Assembly: GCA_003640385.1 (NCBI GenBank)
Contig: RCAB01000096.1
Span: forward strand, 1 to 64,000
DNA length: 64,000 nt
Source of the DNA: Setaria digitata
Lineage: Eukaryota > Nematoda > Chromadorea > Rhabditida > Setariidae
Reading direction: 5' to 3'
Below are positions 8,901 to 49,756 of this stretch, piece after piece; position 1 is the stretch's first letter; each line of letters starts with the position of its first letter. A program made the position numbers and the translations under genes. The notes below the pieces were generated by a model, which made no database searches, was not told where the DNA came from, and saw only the letters and a list, made by a program, of their open reading frames with translations.

Positions 8901-11900
8901 ACGGGACTGGAAATTAGCCTTAGTGGCTGTTTCTCACTATTAATTTTCTTTCTTTTTTCTTGAAATTTCAATGTCCTAAAAGCCCNCAACCAAAACTATG
9001 TGTCACGGGACTGGAAATTAGCCTTAGTGGCTGTCTCTCACTATTAATTTTCTTTCTTTTTTCTTGAAATTTCAATGTCCTAAAAGCCCTATTTCTCAAA
9101 CAGAAAATATGTAGCGCTGAAATAGTTGGCCTTTTATAGTTCATAGGAAAAGTAATAGGTATTTAAACACTTTTACCTTTAGCAATGGATGTAAAAGCTC
9201 AGTATTCGGACTTATTATTGCTAGGATTTCGCTCCAGAACCATTCGCTATCACAATAAAAAATTAACTGACAACAGAGGTTTTTCACAAGCTAAAAATAA
9301 TAAACTTTTGTTCAATACTAATTGTTAGTTCTTCATTTTTGAAATGAGTTGCTTCACTTTTCACTAAACTGCGACAATTGGTTGAAGAAAATACTCCCAT
9401 CCATTGTTTTACAAAGAACAGTAAATTTGGAGTTAGCAGAAACTGAACTTAATTGTTCAGCTGTCCATAACATTATGGACAAAACCATGTAGAAGTTTTG
9501 AAAATCTTAAGAAGTGACTTCAGAAATTTAGGATTATTTTCAAGGTAACCGAAGTACTTACAGTGTAAGCATAAGACAGTAAGGGATTTCTGAAATTTAG
9601 TTCATGGAAGAAATTACCTGCTTGTTATCCTTCCTTATAGAATATTCATTCCTAATCATTTCTTGAGCCTGAAGCGCATTATAGGAGGATGGATCCTTTT
9701 GATTTTCTTCGAACTGCAGCTTGAAATCAGTTAATTTGTCGAGATTCTCAGTGTTGAGTGTTTTGATGTATTGCATAAGTAGCTGTAATGATCGTCAATT
9801 TGGCATTTCTATAAGAGTAAAAATTTAGAATTAAATGGCTCTTTGATGGATCCATTCTAAAGTGTTACCTTGAAATAGGCTAACTGCATGTGAGTGTTAG
9901 CGTAACTCACAATCAACGATTTTGCTTTTACAGTCCTGAAATATATTACCAAATATAGTCTACCGTGTATTTTACTTGTGTATTGCTCTTCCCTAATAAA
10001 ATTTAAAAATTATATCTTATAAGATTTTATTATTTTTTACTTTTTTCCGGAAAATTTTCTTGAAATTTTCATAAACATTTGAGTTTTATCTTTTAGCATG
10101 AAAAACTTGCTGTTGAGCTGTCATTAAAGATGGCATGAAGAAACGTTCATCGATCAGCAAATCCAAGTGAGGAGCAATACCTATGTCCTTTAAAAAATAA
10201 AAATTTGTGACAAATTAAAATTTTATTTAAATGTGTTGAAAAACTCTGCATTACTGCATATTATTTTTTGTTTTTTGACATCCAACAAGTCATTTAAATC
10301 AAAATTTGTCACAGCGGAAATAATTAAAGGACACACCATCTCATACAACTTCTGGACATCTTCTATCGTAACCAAAAGAAGGTTCGGGTCGAAGAAATTA
10401 CTTGGTCTCATTGTTCGAACAACTCCTTTCTGAAATAGTACAACTAGGAAACAGCAACAAAGAATCAGAATTACTCGAGGACCTAATCAAAAGCAAAACG
10501 ATGAACAATCCGAGAGGATCAAGATTTAGCAATAAACATAAATGTACGATATTCCTAAACTATCTACTGACCGCAAGAAGGTTGTACGTTTCGCCGTTTT
10601 TTATGAATTGAACGATTTCGAAAAGAACACCACAAGAGATGAATTCTGCTTGATATCTTCGTTTTCTTAGACATAAGAATCTTCCTACATCACTATAAAC
10701 CGATTCCAGGAAGTTTAATTCACGTGCGAGATCGGTCTTCTGAAATCAACAGTGTCACAGGATCGAATGTGGAAATGCGAAAACCAATGAAATGAGACCA
10801 GAACTGACCTCATATATGGTGAAATCAAATAAGGGACAATCAATTATGCATCGGAGAAGTAGGAAACCATTGGCTCGAGCGAACAGAACAACGGCATGAA
10901 CAATATTTTTGTATAGCATCTTAAAATTTTACAGAATTGAAAGTACGTAAGAGGAAAAGCAACTCATTTCGAACAAATGACATCATTTAAAAGTTTCTCA
11001 TAAGTGATTCAAGAACGATAATTTTGACTTAGTGGTAAAGATACTGTAGGAAAAGCTTGCTTTTACGAAGGCCATCTCCATTACTGCCATTGTATCACTA
11101 TTTAATCGGATATTAAAAATATCGGCAATTCTGAAGTAAGGAGCGATTCCAAATTGATAAGCAACGTACTGGTTCATATCACCAACTGTTTCAAATATAA
11201 TTCCATAATAGTTTCTGAAAAAGTTGGAAAGATTTAAGCATAGAAATAAATGAATCAAAAATGAACGTTTGGAACAACTATCGAATGAGATATGAAACAG
11301 ATCAGTGATCGGTGATAATTTTTCCTGCTGATAGTAACATGAATAAGATCTAAATCAGTTTATAAAATAGTGAGTGAAGGTTTGGTATTGTGATGAAGAA
11401 ATCTGGAGGTGATCGATTGCTCGAGTTAAAAGGAACTTCTTCTTTATACCTAAATTTTTTTCAATTACTCGCAAAATTATGTCAAATACTGCTGAAACAC
11501 AAATTTACCTGTACTGGAAATCCAGAACTTCAGTAAGCACACCAATTATTCTCACATTTTCAAGAATCGAATGGCTTATTTTTCTGTGTTCTTCAACTTT
11601 TTCGGCGACTTTTACCAAAAGATCCAAAGATTTATTTCTATCCAACTGCTCACCTTCTCCTTCAACTTTCGCAACATTTGTTTCTTCACATTCTTGTGGA
11701 TTTACATTTACTTCTGTCGTCCTTTTTTCAGTGTTTCCTTCACCTTCCTGTTCTTCAATTTCTCTATTCAAAAATACAAAATCGCCCTCACTGTTAGTAC
11801 TGCCTGATTCACTCCCTGAATCCATTTCCAGAATTCTCCGTGTGATATGTTTCTCTTTTGTTCTAACTTGAAGCTCACCGCTAATTAAAGTAATCGATAT

Positions 11901-20900: not shown

Positions 20901-23900
20901 AATCAGCTGCTTCAATGCCAAGTAATTCAGCAGCGTTAGCCAAATACGGATCACTTTCTTGCTTAAGCATACAACCAGCTACAATTCATTCATCATTCAT
21001 TTATTCATTATTCAGACTTTTCCATTCTAATCTTATGAAGCATCCAGCAATAGCCATTTTTCCGGATTTATCTTTACATTTATAATTACAACTGAATAAA
21101 CTCAATAAGGTCAAGATTTCTGTACTTTATGACAAGCACTTTCACTAGAATAAGCTAGTGAAATGAAGAGATGGCTGCTCTTCTAGAAATAGAAATTCAA
21201 TTGTCAGTTGATAAATTTTAGAATTAGTGGTTACTTCTGAAACTGGTTGTTTCATCCATAAATTCGACATTTCCAAGATGTAAAATTGCAGCGATTATTT
21301 CAAGTACTCCATCTCGATTTTCTGCTGAGACATTGATGCGATCGAAGGCATCCATTAGTTTTGCAAAATCATTGTAATCATCAATCAGATCATCTTGCAG
21401 ATAATCCCAAAAATAAAAAAAATCAAAATTTATCTTTTTTTTTTTTACTAAACTATGTGTTGAAAGAACAAGTTTGTTCCAGAAGGTGACTTTCAAAAAT
21501 CTATTCCTCTATTCAATTATCTGAATTAATAGGTACAACAGAACAAACTTTTATTCTTACCAAGTCACATTTTCTTCTTTCCAGCACTTTATTTGATGTG
21601 TCGTTTTTCAAAAAGAATTGTAAGCAGCCTTTGCGAAGATACTAAACAAAAGTAAAAACAAAAATAAAAGGAGGAATTTGAAACTTGAACCAATCAATTT
21701 TGACGTGACAGCAAACGATGAATGTGGTGACATTTAAAGTTGGATTTAAAGTGACAGCAAATGACAACATTGAAATTTTCCGGTTTATTCAGCTTTAGCT
21801 TGCTTGCCAGTTGGTCATCTGCACCAGCAATTAGCTGATAAAAGATGTGATAATTCCTTTCGCGTGCATTTTGCCTACAAAGACGTGAACGTTCAAGTAA
21901 ATAATGCGATACGAAACCACCTGCAATAGCTCCCTGAAAGGAAAAACCATTAAATTATTGAATGAATTTAATATTTAAAAAAAAAAAACCCCCTCACATC
22001 AAAGGGGTGAGATTTAGAGGCAACAGGATAGGTTCAGTGCATAGGTTGTCGAAAAGTCACATGCCACAATTTTTTTTCGGTTTAAATCGAAATACGAAAA
22101 TGTAACTTATTTCATAAAAAGAGAGGAAACATGAAGGATAATTTTTTGAAAACCTCAATTTAGAAGTTCTAGATTTTGATTCTATAAACCCAGCTCAAAG
22201 AGTAACAGCTATAACATTTTGGATAACGGGAAAATGCATTTCTTATTAGTTTATTAACTTTAATTTCTCGATTTTACCTCAAGTTCAAATCGTTTAGAAA
22301 TGTGCCCTGGTAGTACAGGTCAACTTCAGTTACTGACTAGAGGACAGTTAAACTACCAAAAATAATTTTTTTTTAAGCGCTAGTCAACTTTTGAGTTGTT
22401 TTAACCTTGTCGTTGAAATGAATTTCAATAAATTTGCCAAATCGACTGCTGTTATTGTTGCATGCTGTTTTCGCATTTCCAAATGATTCCAAAATTGTAC
22501 TTACTAAATTTCAAACCGTTCAATTTATGCTAATTCCCTTGCACAATTTCACATGTAGCAAGTGTAAGGAAAATTGAAACTTTTATATATGTTATGCGAT
22601 AGATGTCTCTCCGTTTCTGAGTCTGAGCTTGAAAAGTTGATAGTTAAGTCATTATAATCAGATCATGTGAACTGCTACTCTATCTTTTGACTGGAACTCC
22701 AATAAATATTTGATCAGTCCGAAATCACTGAGTAACAAAACATGATGAAAAATTAAAAATACTTTAAGATTATNCTGCTACTCTATCTTTTGACTGGAAC
22801 TCCAATAAATATTTGCTGATCAGTTCGAAATCACTGAGTAACAAAACATGATGAAAAATTAAAAATACTTTAAGATTATCATTTTCGTGAAATTACTCCA
22901 GTTGAAACTAAATTGCTTTACTTTCCAAAATGCGCTCTTCAACTTTCCCCACAAGATTGTCCCAGGATTCACACAAGAATCGAATTATGTGCTTTTGCGA
23001 TTCGGTTTTGCCAGCTCCAGATTCTCCGGATATTATGATCGATTGAGATTCATGATTGCGCATCATGTCGCGATAAGCTTTATCAGCTTTAAACAAATAT
23101 CATCTTCATGCGACCAGACTTATGAATAGCAGCTTATGGTTGTCTTGTACAAGTCGTTTTGGAAGAAAAAGTAGTCATCGCTGCTCTGCTTCCGATAATG
23201 ATAAGAAATAGGTACTACTAATCAGTAATTACCAATGGCAAAGATGTGTGGAGGTAGTGTTCCCAATGACCGTCCTTTATATTTTCGCACCATATCGATA
23301 TCGTATAATCCAGAAATTTGTTCGTATGGATTGATAACTATCAGTATGTTTGCCACATAAGTCTGCCAAAGCTTTGCGTCATTTGCAAAATGTTAGAAAC
23401 ACCGTGAAGGACTAAGCGATGCATTTATTTACGCGATTATTTAAATTAGAGCTTCAACGAACGACACTCTCTTCTTCATTCAGATTAAAAGTTACGTGTG
23501 CAGTACGTAACTCAAGTATTTGGACTGTCTTCCCATTCTCGCAAAGTAATTTAAGTGGACAAGGACTCAAAATTCAATGCTTAGGCTCTTGCCATTTCAG
23601 TAAAATAAGAATTTTAAAAGGATTTTGAAGATATGAACTTTTAGAAGGCCATGAACTTACGTAAAATTTTTTGCGATTATAGCGCAAACGGCAGTTGTTC
23701 AGGAGAGAACCATCATTTAGATGAATCAATGAGCCTGAATATAGCCTTGCAATTGGTTATTATTTCATTAATTTCCTGATAAGTTGAATTTCGCACCTTT
23801 TGAATTCATTCTGTCTCAAATAACGTGCTGAGCTTGCATTTCAGTGAAAAACTCTGCAGCAAACAAATATTGTGAGATGTCATGTTGATTAATTACTGAT

Positions 23901-29845: not shown

Positions 29846-31811
29846 GGCGAGCCTAAAATGGAAGACATTGTAACGGTTATGCATAGCTGACAGCAACACC
29901 ACCTAAACTTCCCCCAGTACTACAACGATGCAGAAGTCTCAAGCCGCCGAGTTCAAACTGCAGCTTCAACGTCTCCGATCACTCCTCCTCCTGTTCGATG
30001 AAATGTGAACGTCCTATGAAAACATTAAATCTCGCCGAATTGTTGACCATGGGATGATTATAATAAAGCTTTGCGACTGGATCCTTTATAACAATATACT
30101 AAATCTCATCATAAGTATTATTCCGTAAATGACATACTTAATAATGACATGTTTTATCGCAACTTATTTATGACTGTTTTTCTTGGGAAATGAATTTCTA
30201 AGAAGAAGATCGGAGGGGAAAAATCTCTTTCAGTTTATAGAAAATTCAAAATAAAGAAATTGAAAAAAGATCGAACAATGCTCATAGCAAATAATTCAGC
30301 GACCTAAGGATCTCTTAGGATACTTAGTGTTCTAGATATATCACTATATATTGAGATGTCATATAAAGCTCAGTATTCCAAACTTATTCCCCTATGAATG
30401 CTAGTTAGCACTGGCAATAAACAGTAGACTTGACTACTAAAAGGCGTAAATTGTTGTTTTTCGCTTTGTCCAAAAGTAGACGTTTTAAGCGAACAAAAGG
30501 AACCGGGACTCTTTCGAGATTTAAGTTCCCTTGGTCAGAATCTGTCCTGAATTATGGTGCACGTTGTTGCCAGGTGAATCTGAATCCGTTGCGGTGAAGG
30601 AATCAGATTGACGCGTGAAAAACCGCTTGACAGCGATTGATCGAGTGGATGATCTATTGTTAATTTGCTTTACTCATTAAAAGCAGCAATGTGTGTGGTC
30701 TTGGACACTTCCTTCCTCCTCCTTCCTCCTTAGCATCAGTGTTCATCTCGAGTGTTACTTATATCTGTGTCTCTCTGTTCATTCTCCCGCGAGCATATCA
30801 CCACGTATTTAAAGGAGGTCAAAGGTTATCATGGAAATGGTTTATTCTCACAGTAACTGACAAGACGATGTGTAGGACGCGGCGGAGTCCTGGAAATTTC
30901 CAAATTGAATTGCTAAATTTGTTCAAGAATAGGAAGAGACGGAAAGACGGTTGGTTGCGCAGAGTGGTGGATGGCTGGCTCGGAAAGTGATTTTCTTGAG
31001 ATCGATTATGGTCGTATCTGGATAAGAAACATTTTTAAAAAAGAATCCTAGAAAGAGATGAAGGACAGGAAATGGAACAGAATGGTAGGATGTCGAGAAC
31101 AGTACCAAAACAATGGAGACAGCAGTTCAAGCAAGGCAGTGAAATATCGAAAATAAGTCTGAAGCAGTCACTCTAGTTCCTCACTTGTATCATATTCAAG
31201 CAGATATCTTTGGCTTTATTTCGAGATTCAGAAAGGAATGAAACGAGGATTAGATCGATCTCGAGTTAGGTAGTTTAAGGGTAATTTGCATTAAGACGTG
31301 ATCCGGCATTTAACTTTCAGCATTTCGAGGTTTTAAATACTTCATGCCCTTTCAGAGTCACATTAACTGAGAGCGGATTTTAAATGTTGAACTCTAGTAA
31401 TATAGAAGGTAGACTAGGTTGAGAGATCAGCATGCNCTTAACTTCCAGCATTTCGAGGTTTTAAATACTTCATGCCCTTTCAGAGTCACATTAACTGAGA
31501 GCGGATTTTAAATGTTGAACTCTAGTAATATAGAAGGTAGACTAGGTTGAGAGATCAGCATGCGTCTATAATAAATTCTTCGAATGTATTCCGTAACTTT
31601 TCAAGTAAAATCCAACTATTTTCTACTTAAAGTTCCAGAATGTGAAAGTAAGCCTACTGATGCATTATGCGAGCGTCTCTGATAAGACTCAATTTTAGGA
31701 CTAATAGAATCAATCAGCTTGTCTAACTTTAAAGACTATCGCCAGTCGCCGAGATTTTTGGTAGAAAAGTTTCAGTGCGTTCACAAAGTACTTAATAATT
31801 CTCTTCATTTG
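29846..31811. other. Divergent intergenic region
   Basis: This segment separates the minus-strand NDUFA11-like gene from the plus-strand cysteine-rich gene, so it should hold both promoters. A 99-codon plus-strand frame at 30691-30990 is compositionally odd and without recognisable domains; I do not call it. The only clear structure is the duplicated segment at 31310-31563. Confidence 0.5.
31310..31563. repeat. 126-base near-identical copies around a single N (assembly join)
   Basis: Bases 31310-31435 and 31438-31563 match over 126 bases with one T/C difference. They are separated by N (31436) and one C. The pair lies in intergenic DNA about 250 bases before the cysteine-rich gene. It has the same pattern as the three other N positions in the window. 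Confidence 0.9.
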
Positions 31812-32745
31812 ATGTGCTGTTTTGTTATGGCACTATTCACATTTCTAGCGTTATCTGTTCATACTCTAACGATTTTCTTATTTGGAATCAGACATGATGT
31901 GTATGCTTCATTTCCAACTACCAATGAAGGTAAGCTTTTCAACCTTCTATGCACATAACTTTCAGGAGTAACAACAGTGGTATTTTGGATTACTTCTGAA
32001 TTTCCTCCGATATTCCAGAACTTTTCTAAATCCAATACTGGCTTCGAGCCTGTCTGACCAGGTGGATTCAAGGGTGAATTTTCGTATTCTTACTGTCCTG
32101 TATCTGACAGAAACAGAAACAGTTAATCGAAGCTTCCTGAGTTCAAGCGATGCGGCCCACAGCACTCAGAGGATATGTTCTGCCAGAAGGATTTTACTTG
32201 AACTTTTTAATGAGCACCGGACTTATTTCCTTTTTCTCTTAGTGGCTTCCCGGTGTTGTTCGAAGGAATATGTGGAATGCTGTGAAGAATCAATCGATTT
32301 TGTGAAACCACTTCGTTGCTATGGCATGGAATTGGGGACGAGAATTAACGTGACCTTGTGCATCCAGAAGGCAATGTATGGAGAAGACCAGTCGATGCTT
32401 AATCTTACAGGTCAGTTCTAAATAAAGTGTTCTAGCCTTTGATCTAGACGAATTGCAGACTTCTGTTGGAATTGCAATCTAAATAAATTAGCAAAAAATG
32501 GATTTTGGAGAAATTTCAAGGTGAAAATCATAATCTTCGTTCCAGATACGGTATGTTGTGATGTGTTTGCCGATGATGATAATGATGAGAAGCGGCACTG
32601 TCTTACAGAATGTATTACAGCAATGCAAATACCTACTTTGAAGAATGACCAAAAATTGAAAAGAATCAAAGAATGCCGAAGGAAGAATCTGCTATACAAA
32701 GTAATTTTAAGGAATTTTCTGAATCCAGAGATAAATGTTAAGTAA
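31812..32745 (+). CDS. Small secreted cysteine-rich protein
   Basis: Three exons, 31812-31929, 32243-32410 and 32546-32745, have matching phases and clean GT/AG borders and encode 161 residues. The start ATG at 31812 gives a hydrophobic N-terminus (MALFTFLALSVHTLTIFLF) typical of a signal peptide or anchor; an in-frame ATG further upstream at 31719 would bury it. The mature part has paired cysteines: RCCSKEYVECC, LRC, VTLC, DTVCCDVF, HCLTEC and KEC. One NVT and one NLT sequon are present. The CC...HCLTEC half is reminiscent of the nematode DB module, but I cannot confirm it. The open frame could also splice at 32701 (GTAATT) into an unseen exon. Extracellular location is inferred; function is unknown. 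Confidence 0.65.
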
Positions 32746-34320: not shown

Positions 34321-36162
34321 ATGATTTGTAGCATGTCGATGAAAGTCAGGCTATCAGCGGCGGAGGTCATGTCACAGATTCGGAGATCTCCAGCAGTGCG
34401 TCTTAACACCGGGAATATTCAACGCCATTCAGAATTGTTCCGGCAGATGTTCAAAAATTCAGCGGAAGAACTTTTGGCTGCTCTCGAACATCAGATTAAT
34501 GGGCCAGATGGACCGAATCTGGAGATTAGGTATGGTCAGTTATATCTGGATTTGTAAACATTTAAAGAAAATTAGCAGTTCGACATTCTTTCGTCAATTA
34601 CATTTCCTTCAGAAACATTGCTTCCGAACTTCCAACGAAAAGGGACTTCTTTTAAAAAGGTATCAATTTTGTAGACATAAAAAAAGAAAGAATCTTTCAG
34701 ACCTGACGGTACAGTGATGCTTGCTCGTGATTCCGAAAACTGCCGTCTGAACACCATTGAAAAAGCTGATATGAAAATAACTTTAAAGGTTCATTTATAC
34801 TAATAACAAATTCCCTGGATATTTTTGTAATTTTAAAAATACGAAGATTCGGGATGGTGTTTATATGTGTAAATATATGACCCTGCAAGCAGAATTGCTG
34901 TCTTTCCAAAAATGAATTAATGGAATTGTAGGTATTCATGTCTTCATTAGACATAAAACAAGTAGAAGAAAGCATTGATACGGCTTTACGCGAAACGAAT
35001 ACTAAAACTGTGTCACAGCTGATCATAGCTTTTCCTCCAGACGATAGCCTGGTAATCTTTTCCCTCTTATTAGTGATGTTGGCTCCTCAGTTGAATTTTG
35101 ATGCACTTTTAGCTGTTGTCCTCTTTTTTAATCCCGTTTTAAGTACAACTACATTCTTTATAACAGTGCTGTTTGAAGTATTACTGAATTTTAGTGTTGA
35201 ATATATGGAGAATTGAAGCCATTTGATTTATAAATGGTCCTCAGAATTATCACCAATTTTCCTAATCCACTCAGTATTTCTAATAGCTTTCTAACAGCTG
35301 AGATTTCACAGGATATAGATCCGTCGGTGCCCTCACAAGTTCATCAATGGCTGTCGCGAATTCTTCCGTTTTGGAGACAGCTAGAAACTTTGGTGAATAA
35401 TCATAAAGTACACACATTGGGTGTAGCAGATCTTGAATATGAGCAGTTAAAAGCGCTCTATGAATCCACTAGTGATCACCAGCCAATGATTAACCATTAT
35501 AATACAGAACACTGTTGCACGGTTTGCTTTTTTTCTTCTTTTTTTTCGGATACTTGTAATCCAATTTAAATCTGAACAAAAGTAAGTTCAATTTTAAGGA
35601 GCTGTTACTTTCTTTTTGCTCGTGGTTCATAGTTCGTCGATAACAGGTTCCTCCTGAACTACGTGAATACGCAAAACAGAAGGACATTCAACTACTGACT
35701 CACAATGATTCAAGTTTATGCAGTATTAAGGAACACTTAGGGAAAACGATCAAGAAACTGTTGGGAGATGAAAATTTCGAACTTCTTTTCATTGCAAGGT
35801 TATTAATTCCACACACGAAACACCTAGGAATTCTATTTTTTTTTTATATGGCAGTAGCTAGGTTACTGAGCCGAAAGGCTTGTATGCTTTAAGTAAATTG
35901 TGCAAATTGGCGATTATTAGCAGCAGATAAAAAATTCTGGCCTTTTTGGCCGGTTAGGTTCCAAGATTTTAGAGAACCTGAATCGTGCTTTTCATTTTTC
36001 CGACATTGATTTTTCTTCTTATTGTCAGGGTGTTCATTTTAATTGAAAACAGTGATTTCTAGGTTTCACAAAAATAATTACAGGCTCACTGTTTGGTTGC
36101 GAAGTCGTTCAATAATTGTTGGGAAAGGTTACATCCTCAAGTTCCTCAAAAACATTTCTTGA
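34321..36162 (+). CDS. GCLM: Glutamate-cysteine ligase regulatory (modifier) subunit
   Basis: Six exons with exact phase agreement (34321-34529, 34701-34788, 34932-35051, 35312-35521, 35647-35798, 36084-36162) encode 285 residues; human GCLM has 274. The modifier subunit binds the catalytic subunit GCLC, lowers its Km for glutamate and relieves glutathione feedback in the first step of glutathione synthesis, in the cytosol. Its fold is of aldo-keto reductase type. Matches to the family include RLNTGNIQRHSELF near the start, LPFWRQLETLVNNHKVHTLG, VADLEYEQLKALYE, VPPELREYAKQKDIQLLTHND and the C-terminal SRSIIVGKGYILKF. The ATG at 34321 was taken as start; in-frame ATGs at 34333 and 34339 are alternatives. 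No broken or missing part is seen. Confidence 0.95.
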
Positions 36163-39135
36163 GTTGGAAATACTTCACTTTTACTTACAATTTTTTGCTA
36201 TCTTTAAATTTTGGTAGAAGAAACAAACTTAATGGTGGAGGTATTATGAGCGTCTTAACTTTTCCATAATATTGGTGCGTGATTTCTTGCCGCTGTTGCA
36301 GCATGCTCTTAAAATATTGTCTGGAAACTGAAGCTGTTCCTGATTTCCAGAATCTTAAAACATACATACAACTGCTCAAAATTAAAAATAAGTTGACTAA
36401 GGGGATTGAAAATTTGGTTTATGATTCTAAAACAAACCATTTCGCGAGGTCCATCTGTGTTCGGTGTATGATCTGTAGTAATATTGTTTTCTAATGGAAA
36501 TTATACCAAATCGCCGAATTATTTTTTGAGGATGCGTCCAAATCTTTTGTTGAAAAGTTCATTTACTTGATTATCTTTTTATTCTTTTGATGGAGTAACA
36601 GTTTTTGTTTTATACACTAAAGAAGGAAATATTTTTATTTGGTTCGAAGGTATGATTAATAAGTGGGGTTTATGTTTTTTTGGCTGTACACTTAATTTTT
36701 TTTTTTATCTAGTTCTATATATCAAGTCCTGTACATTTCGGGAACTGGAAAGTATTTTGTTTGGAACGCTAAAACTTGTTTATTTTGAGTTATTTTTAAG
36801 GTATATAAAATGCTATTATCAATTATTCATTCAAGCAGACATTTTCTACATGCTCTTACTATAACATGAAAACACACTGTTTACCGCAAGCATTAACAAT
36901 AAAACTCCAGTACTTATGAAAGGGTTACTTAGTCTAAATTTCCAGTGTTTTGTTTGCTAGCAACAAAAAACCTTTTTAGCTTCAAACAAAGTTCCACTGT
37001 AAAATGCGGACCTAAATATAAAAAACAGATGGCTGTCAAGTTTGATCTAACATGTGAAGTACACTAAATGGATATCGACAAGACAGAGGTAGTTTAAGTA
37101 ACCTAAAAGCCACTAAAATAAGGTGATTCTGCCCAGCAGTAGTGACAGGAAGCGGACCGGTGCTGAAGTCTGATTGTGATGTATTAGGAATTTGAAAGTA
37201 ACTAACGATGCAATAGTGGAAGGATGCAATAAGGAATACCTAAAACCAGTACTTTCAACGAGATTTCGGACGTACTTTATCGCATGAAGCTTCAAATTAT
37301 TAATATATTTTAGGCGGCTTTTTGTCTGGCTAAAAGTATAGGGTTCAACATTTTAATTTGTCAAAACAAATTAGATGAGAAGAGTTTAGTAATAAGATAC
37401 TTTCACGGATCATGATTTAAAACTGCCATTGATATACATAATATAAAAGTGATTATTCAATACCAGTTTTTATTAAGGATGCACCAATGAGGTTTTATAG
37501 GTTTCTCGTGCAAGCCAGAGTAAAGTCAAGTCATAATGAATACTGCAGCTTCAGGTGATCAAGTCCGTTTTAATAGTAATTCGAACCTGAAGAGCTGAAA
37601 ATATTAAAAGACATGGGAAAGTTTCGATAAATCATCGAAGATATTTCAATTCCTCAACATCCCAACGAATACAAAAAAAATACGAGCCCAATGAACAGGA
37701 AATTAATTCATTGTCAAGTAGTAATATCGCCACCTAGGCTGATAAATGGTTTGCAACGAAACAGTGTTTCGGTAGACGACAATGACTGGTTTTTATGTCC
37801 AAGTGGGACAAATATCTCAACTGAAAAATAGGAAAGTACACGGGGTGTTCGAGTTGAAAAGGTGTTCCCGATATGCTGTGGTTTATGGCTTCCTCACAGC
37901 GATGTTAGGAATGAGTGGAGTGAGGTTGAAATCACTCTGAATAACTCATATTTGCTAATAATGAAACCTTGATACTTAAGAATAGTAAAAATGAATCGCT
38001 GTAAGAAATCAAAAGGGCAGAGGATCTTTGTTTTTCCGTGCTAAAGTTAGATGCCTTATCTTTATCATTCTACCGCTAAGAATTATCGCAGCACAAAAAA
38101 GACAAGTCTAAAAGATTGTCTAAGCCGATCACTGTTGTGATTTCTTCATACTCGTGTATTGCTGGATAAAGCAGGCTTGCATTAAACTTCAGTATTTCAA
38201 CAAAAATCGGAATAAGTTGAGGACGTTTTCTGATTCATAGGTTTTCAAAATGCTTTGCACCTTATTCTCTAGAGTAATTTTATGTGGTGGTGCTTATAAC
38301 TTTAACATTCGTTGTTTCCTCTCTAGTTAATTTGAGAAAAAACCAATTCAGGTTTGAAATTTTCTGTATTCCCAAAAGTTCTGCATCATCTGATCCTCTT
38401 GGCAAGGTGTTAGGAAGAATTGGTATTTGCAAAACTTTCAGCTGCTAAAATTTTCTGTTTCATTTGTTGCGTGGAAACAATAACTCTTTAGATGTCCTAA
38501 GCTCTATTACTTTGACACTGGACTTTACTGTCTTCGATTATATCGATAAGTAAAAATGCGCAATCGTGGGAAGGCAAAAGAAAAGGGAAGACAAAAAACT
38601 TGAAGTGCTGAAATTCCTCTTCACTTCTTCATGTATATATGTATATTTGCAAATGAGATTCTGAAAAGTCTTGAGATGGCGATTTTTCATCTTCATCTTA
38701 TCAGTTCAGCTACCAGTTACTTCTCATTTATCACTGGATCTGTGGTGGTATCAGTGTTGTAGTTGTGGGTACCGAGTGAAGGTAAACAACACGTGAATTA
38801 TTTCATTTTCAGTCGTAATAAACAAGGTAAGGAGTTGTAAAAGAGTGGCATATGTTAGTTACCACTAGCTTACTTGTTAAAGCCAATCTTTGTATTGCCT
38901 CAGGTCCTCTGCTATAGATTAATAGATACAGAACAGTTGTGTTCATTTATAAAGTAGTGCAACGCTCTGTTGCCATTCAGATCCAATCTGTCCCCAGCCT
39001 TCCTCTTTCCTCGCTCTTCCCGCGATTTCCGTCACACATTTTATTCGAGAATTCCTTGACCACATCCTCTCTGTCAAAGCAATAACTTTTAGCCTTTATG
39101 GTTATGGACCTTCCTGAACTGATGATCAGATAGAT
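36163..39135. other. Intergenic region between GCLM and the selenoprotein P-like gene
   Basis: Both neighbours are on the plus strand. The first part should hold the GCLM 3' UTR. No exon with credible protein content was found on either strand over about 3 kb. Several short AT-rich frames are regarded as chance. Confidence 0.5.
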
Positions 39136-40928
39136 ATGCAGAAAATGTCTTACTGCAGTGTCATCTGTTTTGATACTTTACTGTTGTTGCTATCTATCGC
39201 AATGTTCGCGAAACCTGTTGTGAAGGTAAAGATTACCGTTTTTATAAATTTGTTCTAATAAATTGTCTGATTGGATCAGTAATACATGAGCTAATTAATC
39301 ATTGTATATATGATTAGATGGAAATCAATGAAGGACTCTCAGTATTTCTGTTCTCTACAGAAGCCTCAACAGCTTCCGCTTTTGAGAGGCTTTGTTAAAT
39401 TTTCCTTGTTGTGTTTATACTGAGCGTAAAAAGGGCTAAGAAATCTCCACCTAGTAGAAATTCTTCAAACAAGCCAGCCCTTTCAAACTTTCACAAGCAT
39501 ATTTCATCACCCAACCAGCAACACCACTGCTTTCGATGAACTTTTTGCCCTTCCTCCAACTCTGCGTACACTCATGTATTGTTTTCAATAAGGTTCTATT
39601 CTTTCTTTCTCACATTTCATGCGTTGGTGACAAGTTCTGAAAAAACAATGCATTTTATTATGTTGAAATTATTAGCAAATTTTAAAGCTCCCACTCGCCT
39701 CAGCTTCACTTTTCTCCTAAAAAGCTCAGTTTGCAAGGAAGATCCCTAGTTCTTATTTGATTTTTGATATGCTTCTTTTCAGCTCCTTCAACACTTCTTT
39801 CACATGAAATGTAAGAGTCTGAGTTCTATCCAAGGAATTAGAGTTGTTTCTTCTGAGGAGTCGGAAAGTTCTCTTTTAAAGATAAAGCAAGTCCACAAAA
39901 TGAAATATTGCTGCTTTAATACTCCGTCTAGATTTAAATGCAAGAAATCAAAAAAAAAAAAAAAATGCTAGGAAAAGCACAAGATAGCATTAATAAATTC
40001 AGAATAATTTCGTAATAATTATTTCAAATTTGACAATATTCATTTACTTTAATTAATGACAGCATTTCGTGTAGAGTGCGCCACTGCTGTGCAATCAGAC
40101 GAAATCATGGAAACTGGGTGGTCGAGATATTGTGGCAGATTCGAAGGGATTCGTTTTACTTGTAGTACTAATGCCTATGCAGTGTGAACATTGTCACCAA
40201 CAACTGATGAAGTAATTTATTTCTGCTCTCACTTCTTTGCTTTCAAGCCTTAAATAGTTCTAGTCGTGAGCAATCCTTGTTTCTAAGCTGAATGCTCTCC
40301 AGAATCTATCAAATTATAGATTTCAAACAATAATGGAAACACTGTCGGAAATAAGGATCGTTGTTGTAGCACCACACGATGAGAATCCTCGTCTGATTGA
40401 ACACTATCGAAGAGAATTTCCTCGTGTTGCGATAGGTGTGGAATCGGTTGCTGAGCCAGTCTGGAACACACTTTCAGGCTCTGCCCACGATCACTTTATT
40501 TACGATCGGTAAGAAATCACTTTTATATTCCATCTTCTCTTGTCTGAATTTGAAGGAAGTGTTGATGTTACGGTGATGCCACGTGAATATTTCTGGGGTT
40601 TCCGTATTCCGTATTTTAGATGTGGTCGTCTGGCTCGCGTTATTCGACATCCAAAAAGTGACACCACTAAATTTGAACACACTCTCCTGGCACTGAAATT
40701 GGCTGTTAGCTATGCTCAGTGTGGTTGGTGTCAGTACGATCCACCCGACCTGCCAGCACCTCAGAAACCAGTGATGACGACCGTCCGTAATGGCAAAATG
40801 AAAAAGACTGTAAGAATTTTCTGAAATTTGAAATTACATCTTACTTTTATTAAATGAATTATAATGTTTCACCCATCCCCCCTCTGTTTGGGAAGTAGTC
40901 GTTGAAGCGGAGAGTATGGCGGAGTTGA
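39136..40928 (+). CDS. Selenoprotein P N-domain-like secreted thioredoxin-fold protein, cysteine form
   Basis: Five exons (39136-39225, 40075-40211, 40320-40508, 40620-40809, tentative 40899-40928) join in phase and give about 211 residues. Exon 1 encodes a signal-peptide-like start (MQKMSYCSVICFDTLLLLLS). Exons 2-4 line up with the N-terminal domain of vertebrate selenoprotein P. The pieces are LLCNQTKSW; GFVLLVVLMPMQCEHCHQQL, where CEHC occupies the place of the Sec-x-x-Cys redox motif; IRIVVVAPHDENPRLIEHY; VWNTLSGSAHDHFIYDR followed across the splice by CGRLARVIRHP; and LAVSYAQCGWC. The selenocysteine-rich C-terminal half of selenoprotein P is absent. The tail is short and basic. The acceptor at 40618-40619 was chosen because it joins IYDR directly to CGRL. 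A secreted or lumenal redox role is inferred. The alternative is a generic thioredoxin-like protein. Confidence 0.8.
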
Positions 40929-43551
40929 CTTCGAAGGAAGTATCGAGTTATGAAGGTAGAGGCAGCATGTGACAGCACAGTACTTTTCCTGGTATCTGAA
41001 ACAGATGCGGTATTGAACTTTGAAACTCTTCTCCGGTCAAGGCACTGAGTGAGTATCTAAGATAAATGTTCCAAATATTCTTATATCTCATTTCGATCTT
41101 TGTATTTCAACCTAGTCTCTGATAGCTCTCTAACTGTGAGTAGTAAGATAAGATGGAGGGTTAATTACCATTAGCGGAAGAATTATATTACGACTTGCTT
41201 GTTGAAAACGTTTGAGATTTGGAGAGATGTTAAGGAGGAGTCTGTAAAATTTGACATTTCGAATCATTCCTTCTAGTCTCCCTGTCAGGAATCAGTGTTA
41301 TTATTCTCGAAGAGTGTAACTAGAATGATCTGTGCATTCACGGCTGTTAGCAATAAATGACTGAAAGAGCCTGTTACTGACCAGTGAGACTGGGACTTGG
41401 AAAGTCAGTATTAGCAAAACAAGTCTATGCTGCCATTACAACGAAAATAGCAGAAGAAGCATTTGAAAAACAAACACATCAAATTAGTTAGAAATGGGAA
41501 AGGTGAAAGTTTTGCTGCCCACACGGGTGATAATATTGCTGACAGTCTAACTAGCAAGAAAAAAGTGAGGACTTGGTATGGAATTCTATAGACTGAAGCA
41601 GACTAGTGAAAAAAGACATCGAGCGAGCAGATTTTAATTAACATAAACGTATGATGCAAATCCTTTACCTCCACTGTCTTTATTATTGAAGAATTCAACT
41701 TATCTACTTCAGCTATCAAGATGAAAACTAATAAACACCGACTGTGTGCTCGAAAGTGTGGTGGGTGGGAAATCTAAATTTTTCACTTCACGTTTGCACT
41801 AATTTACTAAAGGTTTAATGTGACGATGCGTACGTCGGATAAAATGGACAATATTAGAGGTAAATATTACGGAAATATGAACAAGAAGCAGTGAGAAAAG
41901 CAGAAAATGTTTTTCTCTCGAATAAGTTTCGAAATAAAGGAATCTGTAACTTTATAATAAAAAAGCGTATGGAACGGAAAAGAAATCACGAAATGAAGGA
42001 ATATGAACAATTGTTGGCGGATGGAAATGGTAGGTAACAGAATACTTCGCATCCTGCATTATTTAGAAATAAAGAAAGAGAGACTTTAACTAGTTTTGAT
42101 TAGTAAGAAAAATAAGTATTCAGTTAATGGATCTGTTGCGGTGAAAGAACTTATCACCATAAATATCAGAAAATATCATTCCACCAGAAAGATAATAACG
42201 CAATCCATCATTCACTTCATCCAATTTTTTTAACGGTCCAGAGAATATCATTTTTCTTTTTCCACTCATCGACGATGAAAATTTTATTATTCGCAGATGA
42301 CGTAAAAGACAAGTTTCAGCTTAGCAAATGTAAAAAATTTCTGCTAAGAACTAACTCTTCAAGTAGGAAAAGACTGATGCTTCAGGGGACAAATGAGACT
42401 TGAATGGATTTGTATTATGAACTTCTGACTGCCAAAAATTTTATCAAAGTAGGGTTCATCTCTGAAACTGAATTTTACTTTTAAATAAACCTTTCATATT
42501 ATAGCTTCCCAGTCACAGGATATTCAAGTTAGTAAAATATATTTATTCATGAGGAAAAAATTGAATTTCTGAAACATCCGTTTGTAGATTTGTTTTTGAC
42601 CACAGGTGGATGTCACTTCTGGAGAAAGAAAACTTCTCTTTGCCGAAAAATTTTAGTTCAAAAGCGATTAAAATTGATAGAGTGAAATTAAGTTCTGGCG
42701 GTGATGAGTAGTTTATCCCAGTAACGTCTGAAGCAATTTTCAAGTCGAACTTTCACCCAATGAGAATATTATCTCCACAAAAATTGTTGCGGAAACTACT
42801 CACTTATTCACACGTTAATCAACAGACAATGGAAAATTAATTGGTCCAGTTGGTAGCGAACAGCTGAAGATGCATTGTAATAGATATTCATAAAGCTATT
42901 ATTGGATATCTATTATGCAAACCGGCATTAGCATCAACTACTGAGCAATGAATCTAGTGTCTTATATACCTGCTGGAAGTTGAAATTTTGATACATTCTG
43001 GAATACCAAGCCAAACTAATTACTAAATAAATTTAGAAGCGATAATTTGGCGTGTGCCTGATAAGGTTTCTAAATGAACTAATCAAGTAGTTTTAGCATG
43101 AAGAGAACTTCGAAGAACTTCAGGCAAGATATTTTCCTACCTTGTCTTTCTCATTTCACAATTGCTCTCCATCCCTGATAATTCCTGAATTTGCATTTGA
43201 TTTCACTTATACCACCTTTTCCATTACCATCCTTTGCACTTCTAAATCTATTTTTTTATGTAAGTAATCAATCTCGCTGACATAAGCCAAAGTATTCTTT
43301 TTTTTTTGCATGAACATTCAGCACAATCTACACATTTGTCCTAATGGGAAAAATCAAGTTTGGAGTTTTGAAATGATGCTGAGGAGAAAGTTACGAAATC
43401 AGCTGTTCGGGGATAGCGAAAATTGCTCGGGGCACAATTTGAAACAATTATTTCTTGCTCATTTTCACTGACGAGCTCCAAAACAATCGAAAAATTATTT
43501 TTACACATTTTTCTGGAAAACTTTTTTGCCGTGCTTCAACTAACTGTTGCA
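40929..43551. other. Region upstream of the Gln-rich gene; 5' exons not located
   Basis: The downstream plus-strand gene lacks a start codon in its first recognised exon, so one or more 5' exons should lie here. Possible pieces include an ATG near 41827 followed by a GT and a GTAAGT donor at about 43259, but neither could be joined with confidence. The rest shows no coding signal. Confidence 0.4.
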
Positions 43552-46500
43552 GTTCACATGATAACCTCTCACTTGTAACTCTCAACAATAAATGCTTCAA
43601 AGAATTCCAGCGTATCAAAGCGGTAGTACATCCACTAATTGGGCGAACACCTGCAATGGGCTGGAGCTACCGATCTAATACAGTAGCCCCAGTACTGGAA
43701 GTTCAGTCCAGGAGTCCCGGGACACATTTGCCTTCTCTGGCCAGTGCTGCTCCTTCATCAACGGCTATTGAAACAATGGTTAATAGCAATGAACCACAAC
43801 AACCATTATCAGTGCAAGAGAATGATCAAATATCGCAAATGCGATCAAAGTAAATGGTTTTTCGAGAAAGTTAGAATGGTTTGAATTTTATGTGCTCCAT
43901 CGTTTGTTATTCAAGAAAACGTCGTTAAGAATGCGTTTGACTTGAATAAAGACAGGAAAATGAGGCTCGCAAGAGTTCGGATGTGACAAGATTTTGGCCG
44001 ATCTCGAGAAAAAGTTAAAATAGAGTTGAGGTTTTTACAGTTATGTTTGTCAGTCTTCTTAATTCATTTCCATGCAGCTTTTGATGTCTATAAGTCCTGA
44101 TTTTTCTCCTTCATTTCAGTAAACTCAACATTTTTCCTTCATCTCTGTTGCATAAAATGTTGCAAGTCTTTTCTTTGAGGTTTTAAGGTTTGGAAGTGAT
44201 CAGCGACGAATTGGAAATCGACCGGATAAGGATGTATCAAGAGCAAATGATTGGCGAGTTTCGGATGGCTTGACTTCATCGCGAATATTCCTTAGTGGAA
44301 TTCGGCACGATAGAGTCCAGCAACGTGAACAACATCAGCAGCAGAGAGAAAAGCAGAAGGATCGGCAACATCATAGGGGAAGAAAACAGCAAGAACAAGA
44401 GTATATACAGAATCTGGAACAATTACGCATAAATCAGGAGCAGGAAAAAAGGATTCGGGAGCAACAAGAGGAAGAAAGAAGAATCCGGAAACAGCAGGAA
44501 GAGGAGAGGAGGATTTGGGAACAGCGGCGTTTACAGGAAATGCAGCAGCAGCAACATCAAGAACGAGAACAGCAAAGACTTCAGCAACAAGTAATTCATT
44601 AAAATTTTCTGAATACTGTCTAGCAATTCAAAACGGAAGTCATTGCGGAAGTAAAATTTTCAGTATATCCTTAATCTTCAATAACTTCTGAGAAAAGTTT
44701 TGCAAGTATCGAGTAAGAGACATAAGGGATTTTTCCATTATTAAAAGAATTCCTCTTAACATTCCTGCAAAGTAAATAAATAATTGACAGGAGCTTCAAA
44801 GAAGAATCGAGGAACAACGAAGGTTACAAGAACAAATAGAAAGTGAACTTTATGCAGGTGTAAGTGGTGAACAAGATGAAGGTGAGTCCGCTCAAGAGAA
44901 TGAAAACAACTGGGGACAACTCAGGGCTCCGTTGCATCACCGAGGTTAGTCTTAAAATTCTTAGATCATTTCGACTAGTAAGTTTCAATACTATAACACA
45001 TCGTATTGTATTAAATAAAATTGCTTATATTTTAGAATACTTACATGAATAATGGCAGTTCTTTTAAGCAGCCAAAGATGAAGGGCGATAATTAATGTTA
45101 ACCTATTAGCTGGGTGGGATCTGACGACCATTATTACTAGTTTCTAAAGACATGCATACTTTTCTTGCACTTCTTGCATTCCTTGTTTATAATGTGTCTG
45201 TAAATTCCTTAAAGATTACACTTCAACAATGAAAACATCTTTTGCTCCAATTACTCGATCTACAAAAACACCATCTCTCTACGACTCAGGTGATGAGGAT
45301 GATTATGATTACTCGCAGATGGCAAGTGAAACAACTGTTGCTCCAACTGAAAGGGTTAGAATTACTACATTAATTTCAACGGCGGAATGGAATTTCAAGA
45401 GCTGTTTCTTTTCCTAGGGCAGTTTAGAAAGATTCTTATTTCCTAGAAACTTTAGTGGAAATGTCAAACGATATCATTTGCTATAATGTGATGTCCCATG
45501 ATTTATGTGNTTTCTTTTCCTAGGGCAGTTTAGAAAGATTCTTATTTCCTAGAAACTTTAATGGAAATGTCAAACGATATCATTTGCTATAATGTGATGT
45601 CCCATGATTTATGTGATGCCGGAAAGAATCTTTTTTGAAATATTAATGAAAATGAGATAGGAAAAATAAAGACTATATTTGTTTTAAGAATTGATTCAAT
45701 CCACCACAAACTTTTAAAAATAGGCGTGGTAAATAAGAAATTTATAAATTTTGGAGTTTCTTTTGAAGAATTTTCAGACACAGATTTCGGGCACGATGCC
45801 ATCGGGACATTGGCCGACGCCATTTGTATTTGAAGAACAAGTGCCATGCGCCGCCTTTACAGATGAAGTTTGCATTGAACAGGTAGGCACTGCTCACTGT
45901 TTTAGCATATTTCTGGAGTTTTAGATTCTCTAAAGGAACTTTGCTGTGTGTTTCTGTTTTAATTATCCAGAAAAGACGAATGGGTTCTGATAAGATGAGC
46001 AAATGTTGTGATAAAGGCATTTATTTGACGGATTTGTGCATGCCTGGACGCTGTACAAATGCTACCACTGAACTGTGCTGCATGCAGAAATTTCTCCAGG
46101 TTGTTTCATTTTATATCCTATTATTAAATGAGTCTCGATTTCGTTCATGGAGGTCGCTGTAGTGAAGACAGGACGTATTTTTGGCATGATAGTTGTTTGT
46201 CGGTCCTAGGTTGACGTGTTAATATCAATAGATCACTGATTGTTCATCGAGGAGATTTTGCTGTAGAATTTTCTGGAATAATTTTATGGAAAGAATTTTT
46301 TGCTATTCCTCAGTCCTATTCAAATGTTAATATTTATACTTGCAGTCTAAATACAGTTGCTGTAGGAATGATAGCGAAGCAATTAATTCTCCCGGTGATG
46401 CATTCAGCCGCTGTTGCTTCCACAAATTTGTACAGGATGATGTGAGTTCTTTTTGAATTGTTGAGGCTCTCGGGATGTGATTACCTGGTTTTGAATAAAT

Positions 46501-46978: not shown

Positions 46979-49756
46979 GGCTTTCTCAAGACATTGCAAT
47001 CACTTCTCTTCCAATGTACTTCAAACTTCTCAAGTGCCGAACCTCTAAATATATTTCGTGCCTATCTTATTACCAGTACGAGAGATAGTCCAGTTCTAAT
47101 TATGAATTAGTCAGTTCTCCGTTATTTGTCCTCAACCTATGCAAATGATTGATAACCTCTAAGAAATTGTGTGTTGTATATATAGTTAGTAAGAGAGTGA
47201 CATTGTTAATAACTGATACCATAATTTGCCTTGGAATTTGTTGATTCATCCCTTCTTGCTGTTTTTTTTTCTTTCTACCTGTCCTTCGTTCATTGCATTT
47301 TGATATATATCATTACCACCATTTATGGCTCACACATATGTTCCTGAAATGTTCTTTTTTGTAGTCAGTTGTTTAATTTATTTGAAAACTCGTCAGAGCT
47401 TGTCAGGTAAAATCAAAACAATGTGTTAAATATTTCCTAAATTTAGATTGAAATAACAACTCACCTTTGAAAAAAGATTATTACGTGTTATGTTCAACAC
47501 GAATCAGATTCCAGTTTAAGAAAAAAAAAATTTGAGAAATTCACAAATTATAGAATATTTTTTACAATTTCAGCGCTTGCATTATTAGTATCATACCTGG
47601 TATCTCGAGTGATATTACCAATGATATTGATGGTCGAATGAGGCAGAGGAATAAGCAATTGACGTTGTAGAGTAGGAGATTGGATACCCGAGAAATGGCC
47701 TAATGTGGCACGGCTGAAACCTCTACAAATTGATTAGGCTCTGAATTACAAGCCAATCATCATCACGTTCAGCTATGCCAACATCTTGCCTTGTCCCGTG
47801 TCCCATGTTTCTGTTTCGTGATTTACACTGCTAGGAAACAAAGCCTTATAACATCTCTATAGTACGGGAGCTGGGAGTTTCAGGATGCGCTGGACCAGTG
47901 TAACTGGTTGATTAACAAGCCGGCTGACTGACTGTTGTGGTGGTGCTAATGCTTTGCATAAATAGATCGAGATGGATCTCCTTCGTTGACAGAATCCGTT
48001 TTGAAAGGTGAGGTGTGGTGAGGGGAAGAAGCTGGATGCTGAACTTCTCAAATAACTGTCACCATTGCTGCAGCCTCAGCTCGAGTACCTTGGAGAGATG
48101 AGTTATGTGAGACAGGAAGAAGCAGTATGATCATCGCCATCTATATTTAACGGACTTTTTCAGCATGCTATACAGCCACTTTTATCGTTACCATTGTCCT
48201 CTATCCTTTATTTACTCAGTTTTTCATCACATCAACGTCATCAGCGAGATGAACAAGGTGACTGAGGGACGACAGGTAGACTACATCTCTCACCTAAATC
48301 AAACTTAACATAACTGATTCCCTCTCAAATGTTTACTGAACGAATCGACAACGGCGATGGCGACGGTTGTTAATTTACTCCTACCTGTACCTGCTCCACC
48401 TTCTTGTGTACCTTCGTTATGCTCGGTACCACCCTTTCTTTCTCTCTACCTCCGGAACTATCGGTATAGCTTAGTGCCAACCCATCATCCTCCTTCCTAC
48501 CAGAATGCTTCAACTGCTTCACTTAGCTACTCTCTTTTTTTATTCACTGAAAAACGAATAAGCAAATGTTGCTTAAATTTTGCTCACCAACAAAATCTAT
48601 GAAAGTCCAACAATTTGTTCGCTTTCCGAAGCACATCCTTGTCCCATTCTACAGTGATTCCAACAGTGCAATAAACTTCTGCTAATGTGTTCCAGTTGAA
48701 TTCAACTGCGATCTTTCCTCCTTCTATTCCTTCCATTCATTGCAACCTCTCTCAACACAACCTATTCATTGCTTATTCTCGAGCTAATAAACAAGCTTAC
48801 ACTTCCTTTTTAAAAAAGCTTGAATAGAGCAAGTTGTTAAGACATTAATTGTTCAGAGTACCATCAAAACTTTTAATGAATTTGATGAGTGAATACTGCT
48901 GCATTTTAAGTGCTGCCTAATATTATTTGAAATTCATTTCATCTGAATCACTTTTCCTCAAAAATATTCAAAAGTATTCAAGTGAGCAGTGGATAGATGG
49001 CTTTAATTCAAGAAAAAAAAAGTGAAGCAAAAGGCGTAATATCCCATGTAACTATTTGATAAGTTCTTTGAAAAGGAGCTGTTCATCACCGGTGCAATTA
49101 CTTGAATTCCATTATTAAGAACTATTTTTGTTCTCATGCTATAGAAATGGTGAAGTTATAAGTTTCTGTTAAAGGTGGCTTTTACCATACAAATTTTCAT
49201 CTCATGAACAGTCACATTTCCATGAGATTTGTTAAGAAATAAATGTGCAACATTATTCAAGCTCGCAAGATTGAAGAAAAAAACAATTAAATATAAAATT
49301 CTTTGATATTTCATCAAAAATATTTTTCTAGAATTCAGAGTATCGCCACTTTATTTTAATCTTTACAAATGTTTATTTACAGTATCTGCTGAAATTACTG
49401 GACATATAAACTAAGTGAGTAAATAAATAGCTATTCATTTTCACAAATCCATGCGCAGAATTACGGAAGAACAAAATAAAACGAAAGTCTGGAATTATCG
49501 GGATAATTTCATTATCTGAGTGGGATAGTTGACATCATTTCTATTGAACCGTTGAGGCAGTGAATGAATTTAATATTTGATTCAAGAACTCGTGAAAGTT
49601 TTGCTAAATTTATCTGAACTAACTCAAAGATTAAACAGTTTTATTGCATATACTATATGAAAGAAGTTATCGTTTACCAACAGCTTATTGAAACTGAGGC
49701 TGAATTTCATTAGTTGATGAACTAATGATACACGAAACATGAATCTGAACGAGATT
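46979..49756. other. Convergent intergenic region
   Basis: The region lies between the stop of the plus-strand Gln-rich gene and the stop of the minus-strand KANK gene, so it should contain two 3' UTRs. Pyrimidine-rich stretches near 48350-48560 give a long low-complexity open frame that I do not regard as coding. No other feature was supported. Confidence 0.5.

What the first reader, a model, noticed from the sequence alone, without database searches (positions are those of the whole stretch)
39136..40928. Cysteine-form selenoprotein P-like gene in a nematode
Four short exons join in phase to give a secreted protein whose blocks (QCEHC redox site, VWNTLSG...FIYDR-CGRL, QCGWC) match the selenoprotein P N-terminal domain. 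Sec is replaced by Cys and the Sec-rich tail is absent. Selenoprotein P is best known from vertebrates as a selenium carrier. A Cys-only worm form would have only the thioredoxin-like activity and could show what the domain did before selenium transport.
Basis: partly seen in the sequence, partly recalled or inferred. Interest (0 to 1): 0.75.

Follow-up and report, generated by a model that had tools for sequence, protein, structure and literature searches.

The report
Cysteine-form selenoprotein P domain gene
A parasitic-type nematode carries a gene for a small, probably secreted thioredoxin-like protein related to the front domain of selenoprotein P, with cysteine where human selenoprotein P has selenocysteine; it is a real gene, of a family already described in worms.

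Summary
Four exons at 39136-40824 (+ strand) join in phase at GT-AG borders and give a protein that passes Pfam SelP_N (PF04592) with 56 bits against a cut-off of 23.2. Brugia malayi, Thelazia callipaeda and Dracunculus medinensis have relatives at 73, 69 and 48% identity. The Brugia protein found only this one place in the window's own 75.6 Mb assembly. A model of the Brugia protein is a thioredoxin fold close to ResA/DsbE-type oxidoreductases, with CEHC at the start of a helix. C67 lies exactly one residue behind the end of an Ixodes scapularis frame, as expected if the tick has UGA there. The assembly keeps tRNA-Sec, SepSecS and a GC-UGA-G thioredoxin reductase end, so Sec is absent from this gene, not from the worm. 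Novelty is low: Lobanov et al. 2008 (PMC2397514) reported SelP homologues 'from nematodes to mammals', a Cys-containing one in C. elegans, similarity to TlpA/ResA, and a Trx-based function. That it shows the state before selenium transport is not supported.

The parts
39136..39225 (+). exon 1, start codon and hydrophobic leader (possible signal peptide)
   Evidence: in phase with exon 2; mean hydropathy up to 2.82 over 11 residues; no close match in relatives, so the least certain coding exon
40075..40211 (+). exon 2, first part of the SelP_N thioredoxin-fold domain with the CEHC site (C67 at 40183-40185 TGT, C70 at 40192-40194 TGT)
   Evidence: 81% identity to Brugia, E 6.6e-22; codons
40320..40508 (+). 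exon 3, middle of the domain up to FIYD and most of the next codon (R)
   Evidence: 73% identity to Brugia, E 2.6e-27
40620..40824 (+). exon 4, CGRL...QCGWC (C140, C173, C176) and a short end; coding up to the donor-like site after 40809, or on to the TGA at 40822-40824
   Evidence: 78% identity to Brugia, E 2.3e-26; end ...KKTVRIF resembles Thelazia ...KTVVRVF
   Evidence: in phase, but no counterpart in the Brugia, Thelazia or Dracunculus ends

Best explanation
It is the spirurine-nematode member of the SelP_N family, the N-terminal domain of selenoprotein P: a small, probably secreted thioredoxin-fold thiol oxidoreductase, found at one place in the assembly. Shown: family, in-phase exon structure, thioredoxin fold of the Brugia relative, Cys at the Sec position, six domain cysteines kept in 4 of 4 nematode sequences. 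Inferred: C67 is the attacking thiol and C70 the resolving thiol; the pair cycles between dithiol and disulfide in the secretory path or outside the cell, reducing disulfides or hydroperoxides. As read here it has neither Sec nor a Sec-rich tail, so it cannot carry selenium as Sec. The Cys is most simply a replacement of an older Sec.
Against: No transcript or protein data. The fold was predicted for the Brugia protein, not for the spliced window protein, and the other four of five models had mean pLDDT of 66-68 against 77 for the one kept. Where 3hdc has LPDTF, the worm and its relatives have no proline; I recall this place as the cis-proline of thioredoxins, so ordinary thioredoxin substrate binding may not apply. 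Secretion rests on hydropathy. A UGA in ticks was inferred from frames that end there; the codon was not seen, and the Ixodes ricinus record has R at the site.
Confidence: 0.78

Rival explanations
1. It still is a selenoprotein: the terminal UGA (40822-40824 or 40926-40928) is read as Sec and a short Sec tail follows.
For: Both candidate stops are TGA; the assembly keeps Sec machinery; 39 open codons follow the second TGA; a crude SECIS-like scan of 40800-44000 gave 5 hits against a mean of 0.97 in 100 two-base-block shuffles.
Against: Rfam finds no SECIS in 36000-45000 at E <= 1; but RF00031 found none anywhere in the assembly either, so this is weak. The scan was not specific: it also gave 3 hits against 0.52 behind the thioredoxin reductase end. 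The Brugia tail finds nothing behind 40815 near this gene at E <= 50. The redox site itself is TGT.
Confidence: 0.04
2. The Cys form is ancestral, and Sec entered the family later in other animals.
For: TlpA and ResA have CxxC; Cys forms are also reported in C. elegans and Nematostella (PMC2397514). The nematodes' place in the tree is unsure.
Against: Sec at this site in vertebrates and amphioxus and probably in a tick; PMC2397514 infers Sec-to-Cys replacement for Xenopus SelPb.
Confidence: 0.12
3. It is a decayed or contaminating copy.
For: Exon 1 and the 3' end are uncertain.
Against: Open in-phase exons; 46-72% identity over the alignment with six cysteines kept in the 3 named worms; the closest relatives are worms and the assembly carries other nematode-type genes, e.g. 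a HER-1 homologue in this window.
Confidence: 0.02

Closest known systems
SelP_N domain proteins of Brugia malayi (P0001), Thelazia callipaeda (P0002), Dracunculus medinensis (P0003)
   Same: Closest relatives found; CxxC, DRCGRL and CGWC all kept; UniRef names them as SelP_N domain proteins
   Different: Brugia model has a longer C-terminal tail; Dracunculus has CNFC in place of CEHC and its record lacks the start
Cys-containing SelP homologue of C. elegans, NP_494277.2 (PMC2397514 section 8)
   Same: Nematode, SelP-related, no Sec, function assigned to the Trx fold
   Different: Described as distant, with 23 Cys and annotated as Q/N-rich; its sequence was not fetched here, so orthology is untested
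Vertebrate selenoprotein P (SELENOP), N-terminal domain
   Same: Family (PF04592), position of the redox site; Trx fold proposed in PMC2397514
   Different: U-x-x-C instead of C-x-x-C; His-rich and Sec-rich parts behind the domain. No vertebrate sequence was aligned here
Bacterial ResA / TlpA / DsbE thiol-disulfide oxidoreductases
   Same: Fold, and CxxC at a helix start
   Different: About 10-18% identity; in the one alignment seen (3hdc) DRKG stands where the worm has DRCG

Membership tests
SelP_N (Pfam PF04592) | score over the curated cut-off | tested here: met
   56 bits against 23.2, residues 35-188
SelP_N (Pfam PF04592) | thioredoxin fold with the redox motif at a helix start | tested here: met
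Selenoprotein P as a selenium carrier | Sec in the UxxC site | tested here: not met
   codon TGT at 40183-40185
Selenoprotein P as a selenium carrier | Sec-rich, His-rich C-terminal part | tested here: not met
   read to the TGA at 40822 the protein ends 30 residues behind CGWC, with no His there; the exon-5 version adds only SLKRRVWRS. A further unrecognised exon is not excluded
Selenoprotein P as a selenium carrier | two SECIS elements in the 3' UTR | tested here: inconclusive
   no Rfam SECIS, but Rfam found none anywhere in the assembly, TrxR included; own scan not specific
Secreted proteins | cleavable signal peptide | tested here: inconclusive
   hydrophobic stretch in exon 1; no signal-peptide predictor available
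ResA/TlpA thiol-disulfide oxidoreductases | disulfide reductase activity | not testable with these tools
   needs an assay

The most novel reading that the evidence does not exclude
Spirurine parasites kept a secreted, selenium-free SelP domain, while free-living worms may have lost or remodelled theirs, as an extracellular thiol peroxidase or reductase used against host oxidants; it would be a natural Sec-to-Cys replacement of the SelP redox site in an animal that can still make Sec.
Probability: 0.15. Interest if true: 0.5.

Novelty: new member of a known kind. Interest (0 to 1): 0.22.

Why it matters
What the SelP N-terminal domain does apart from selenium delivery is poorly known. A short Cys-only form, which should be easy to express in bacteria, would let that domain be assayed without Sec or the tail. 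It also points to Sec being given up in one gene while Sec machinery and a Sec thioredoxin reductase are kept. None of this overturns current views.

Tried and rejected
The RF00031 SECIS search of the assembly found nothing at E <= 1, not even at the TrxR gene with GC-UGA-G, so its silence at the SelP gene says little. My own SECIS-like scan gave more hits than shuffles at both places and was not specific; I draw nothing from it. The family search of the assembly with PF04592 found no match and rang in none of 14 controls; the Brugia protein as query did find the exons, with one candidate contig scored, so a strongly diverged second copy is not excluded. SPS (TIGR00476) gave four pieces on one contig, all below the cut-off, one with stops inside, and the same search rings in 14 of 14 controls: weak evidence, not counted in the argument. 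TIGR01438 likewise rings in 14 of 14 controls; the TrxR call rests on the in-frame end read and on my recall of TrxR ends. NCBIfam gave only matches far below cut-offs (e.g. SelL-related 17 of 120 bits; TUGYCR-motif redoxin 21.4 of 100 bits for Dracunculus). The tree (the window and 20 of the 36 proteins returned, 147 of 510 columns) put the nematodes beside Ixodes, but on a branch of 5.79 with 90/20 support, so I do not use it for origin or transfer. No protein named as vertebrate came back from the three protein searches (the last scored only the 7996 candidates sharing most words and did not list Dracunculus); the vertebrate comparison is from papers. The guess that exons at 34.3-35.9 kb are the glutamate-cysteine ligase modifier subunit came from recalled motifs and was not confirmed. 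Paper PMC4114682, named in a reference list, is not held.

Full report
What is there. The + strand from 39136 to 40824 carries four exons (90, 137, 189 and 205 bases if exon 4 is read to its stop) whose borders are GT-AG and whose phases match. That product is 206 residues.

Independent support. A search of about 5.8 billion proteins gave three relatives at E <= 0.001, all spirurine nematodes: Brugia malayi 73%, Thelazia callipaeda 69%, Dracunculus medinensis 48% identity over 88, 82 and 69% of the query. A profile search listed 11 proteins: these three, two short pieces at 72 and 58% identity that look like exons of further worms (P0004, P0005), three named Ixodes proteins and three unnamed ones. 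A third search listed 35, among them P0022 (a piece 83% identical to Brugia) and named spider, amphioxus, mollusc and coral proteins. The four nematode sequences share C36, C67, C70, C140, C173 and C176. In the assembly of 75,555,924 bases the Brugia protein finds three matches, the three domain exons of this gene.

The Sec site. P0036 (Ixodes scapularis) and the near-identical unnamed P0035 end after LLKAT, directly before the column of the worm's C67; a frame that stops there is what a UGA at this place would give, but the codon was not seen. Two oyster models begin just behind the site. Of the other non-nematode rows that fill the column, Ixodes ricinus has R, P0017 W, P0023 S and Mactra V (in a stretch that aligns badly); none has Cys, and the remaining rows lack the region. 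The worm codon is TGT. PMC8230778 (passages) places Sec40 of human SELENOP in a U-x-x-C motif; PMC3473315 (passages) reports Sec in the N-terminal Trx-like domains of an amphioxus SelP.

Sec elsewhere in this assembly. A tRNA-Sec scores 71.9 bits (gathering score 47), with anticodon TCA. SepSecS matches score 348.1 and 50.2 bits. A thioredoxin reductase end reads ...FTTLTLLKEDGQTLKATGC-TGA-G-stop; that this is the usual GCUG end of TrxR is recalled. SPS-like pieces are below the family cut-off and are weak evidence. So the worm very probably makes Sec but does not use it at this site. PMC8914392 (start of abstract in a listing; a term search found no SelP passage) describes TrxR selenoproteins of Brugia and Onchocerca.

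Fold. AlphaFold2 on the Brugia protein with 31 sequences gave mean pLDDT 77.1 for the model kept (66.4-68.1 for the other four), with block means of 87-96 for residues 31-150. Its solved neighbours are thioredoxin-like, CcmG, ResA, DsbE and PrxQ/BCP proteins; one is, by coincidence, a CEHC variant of ResA. The 3hdc alignment puts a proline of LPDTF opposite the HDHF of the worms; the relatives have no proline there either, so the usual cis-proline, a recalled feature, seems to be missing.

The ends. Exon 1 supplies a hydrophobic leader but has no good counterpart in relatives. After exon 4 there is a donor-like GTAAGA; Thelazia, P0004 and Brugia all show VR at this place, which may be coding or a conserved donor read as protein. 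The Brugia tail finds no counterpart behind 40815 near this gene.

What was known. Lobanov and colleagues 2008 (PMC2397514; sections 6 and 8 read whole, other passages by term search) reported SelP homologues from nematodes to mammals, Sec content from zero to 28, a distant Cys-containing homologue in C. elegans, Cys forms in Xenopus SelPb and Nematostella, structural similarity of the domain to TlpA and ResA, and the inference that the C. elegans protein works through its Trx fold. Zarowiecki and Berriman 2014 (PMC4413821; [quoted passage not shown] PMC3473315 (passages) says SelP is rare in invertebrates; PMC2375036 (passages) and PMC6155587 (passages) give thioredoxin reductase as the only selenoprotein of C. 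elegans. Searches for 'selenoprotein P' with nematode (25 of 65 papers listed), with Brugia (6 papers) and with filaria (5 papers), and for SelP with helminth and thioredoxin (4 papers), listed no paper whose title or start of abstract treats the filarial protein; the library is open-access only.

Verdict. Interest is modest because the family, a Cys form in a nematode and the likely function were already described.

Noticed in passing
window 31972-32418 (+): Open frame matching Pfam Caenor_Her-1 (46.2 bits, cut-off 20): a homologue of the C. elegans sex-determination protein HER-1 in a filarial-type worm.
   Followed up: no
window 47692-47794 (-): mir-72 family microRNA precursor just over its Rfam gathering score (61 against 60 bits).
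   Followed up: no
window 21227-21508 (-): Part of a myosin motor (Myosin_head 36.2 bits, cut-off 33.3).
   Followed up: no
window 8884-9089, 22672-22880, 31310-31563, 45403-45615: Four two-copy tandem duplications with periods of 104-128 bases, three at 98-99% matches and one at 95%: young duplications or assembly artefacts.
   Followed up: no
window 34321-35889 (+): Open frames upstream on the same strand look like glutamate-cysteine ligase modifier subunit by recalled motifs; not confirmed by Pfam or PDB sequences.
   Followed up: partly
P0006 (Ixodes ricinus), residue two before FC in KATRPFC: Arginine at the expected Sec position, while the Ixodes scapularis frame ends there; a base change or editing of the record is possible.
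   Followed up: no
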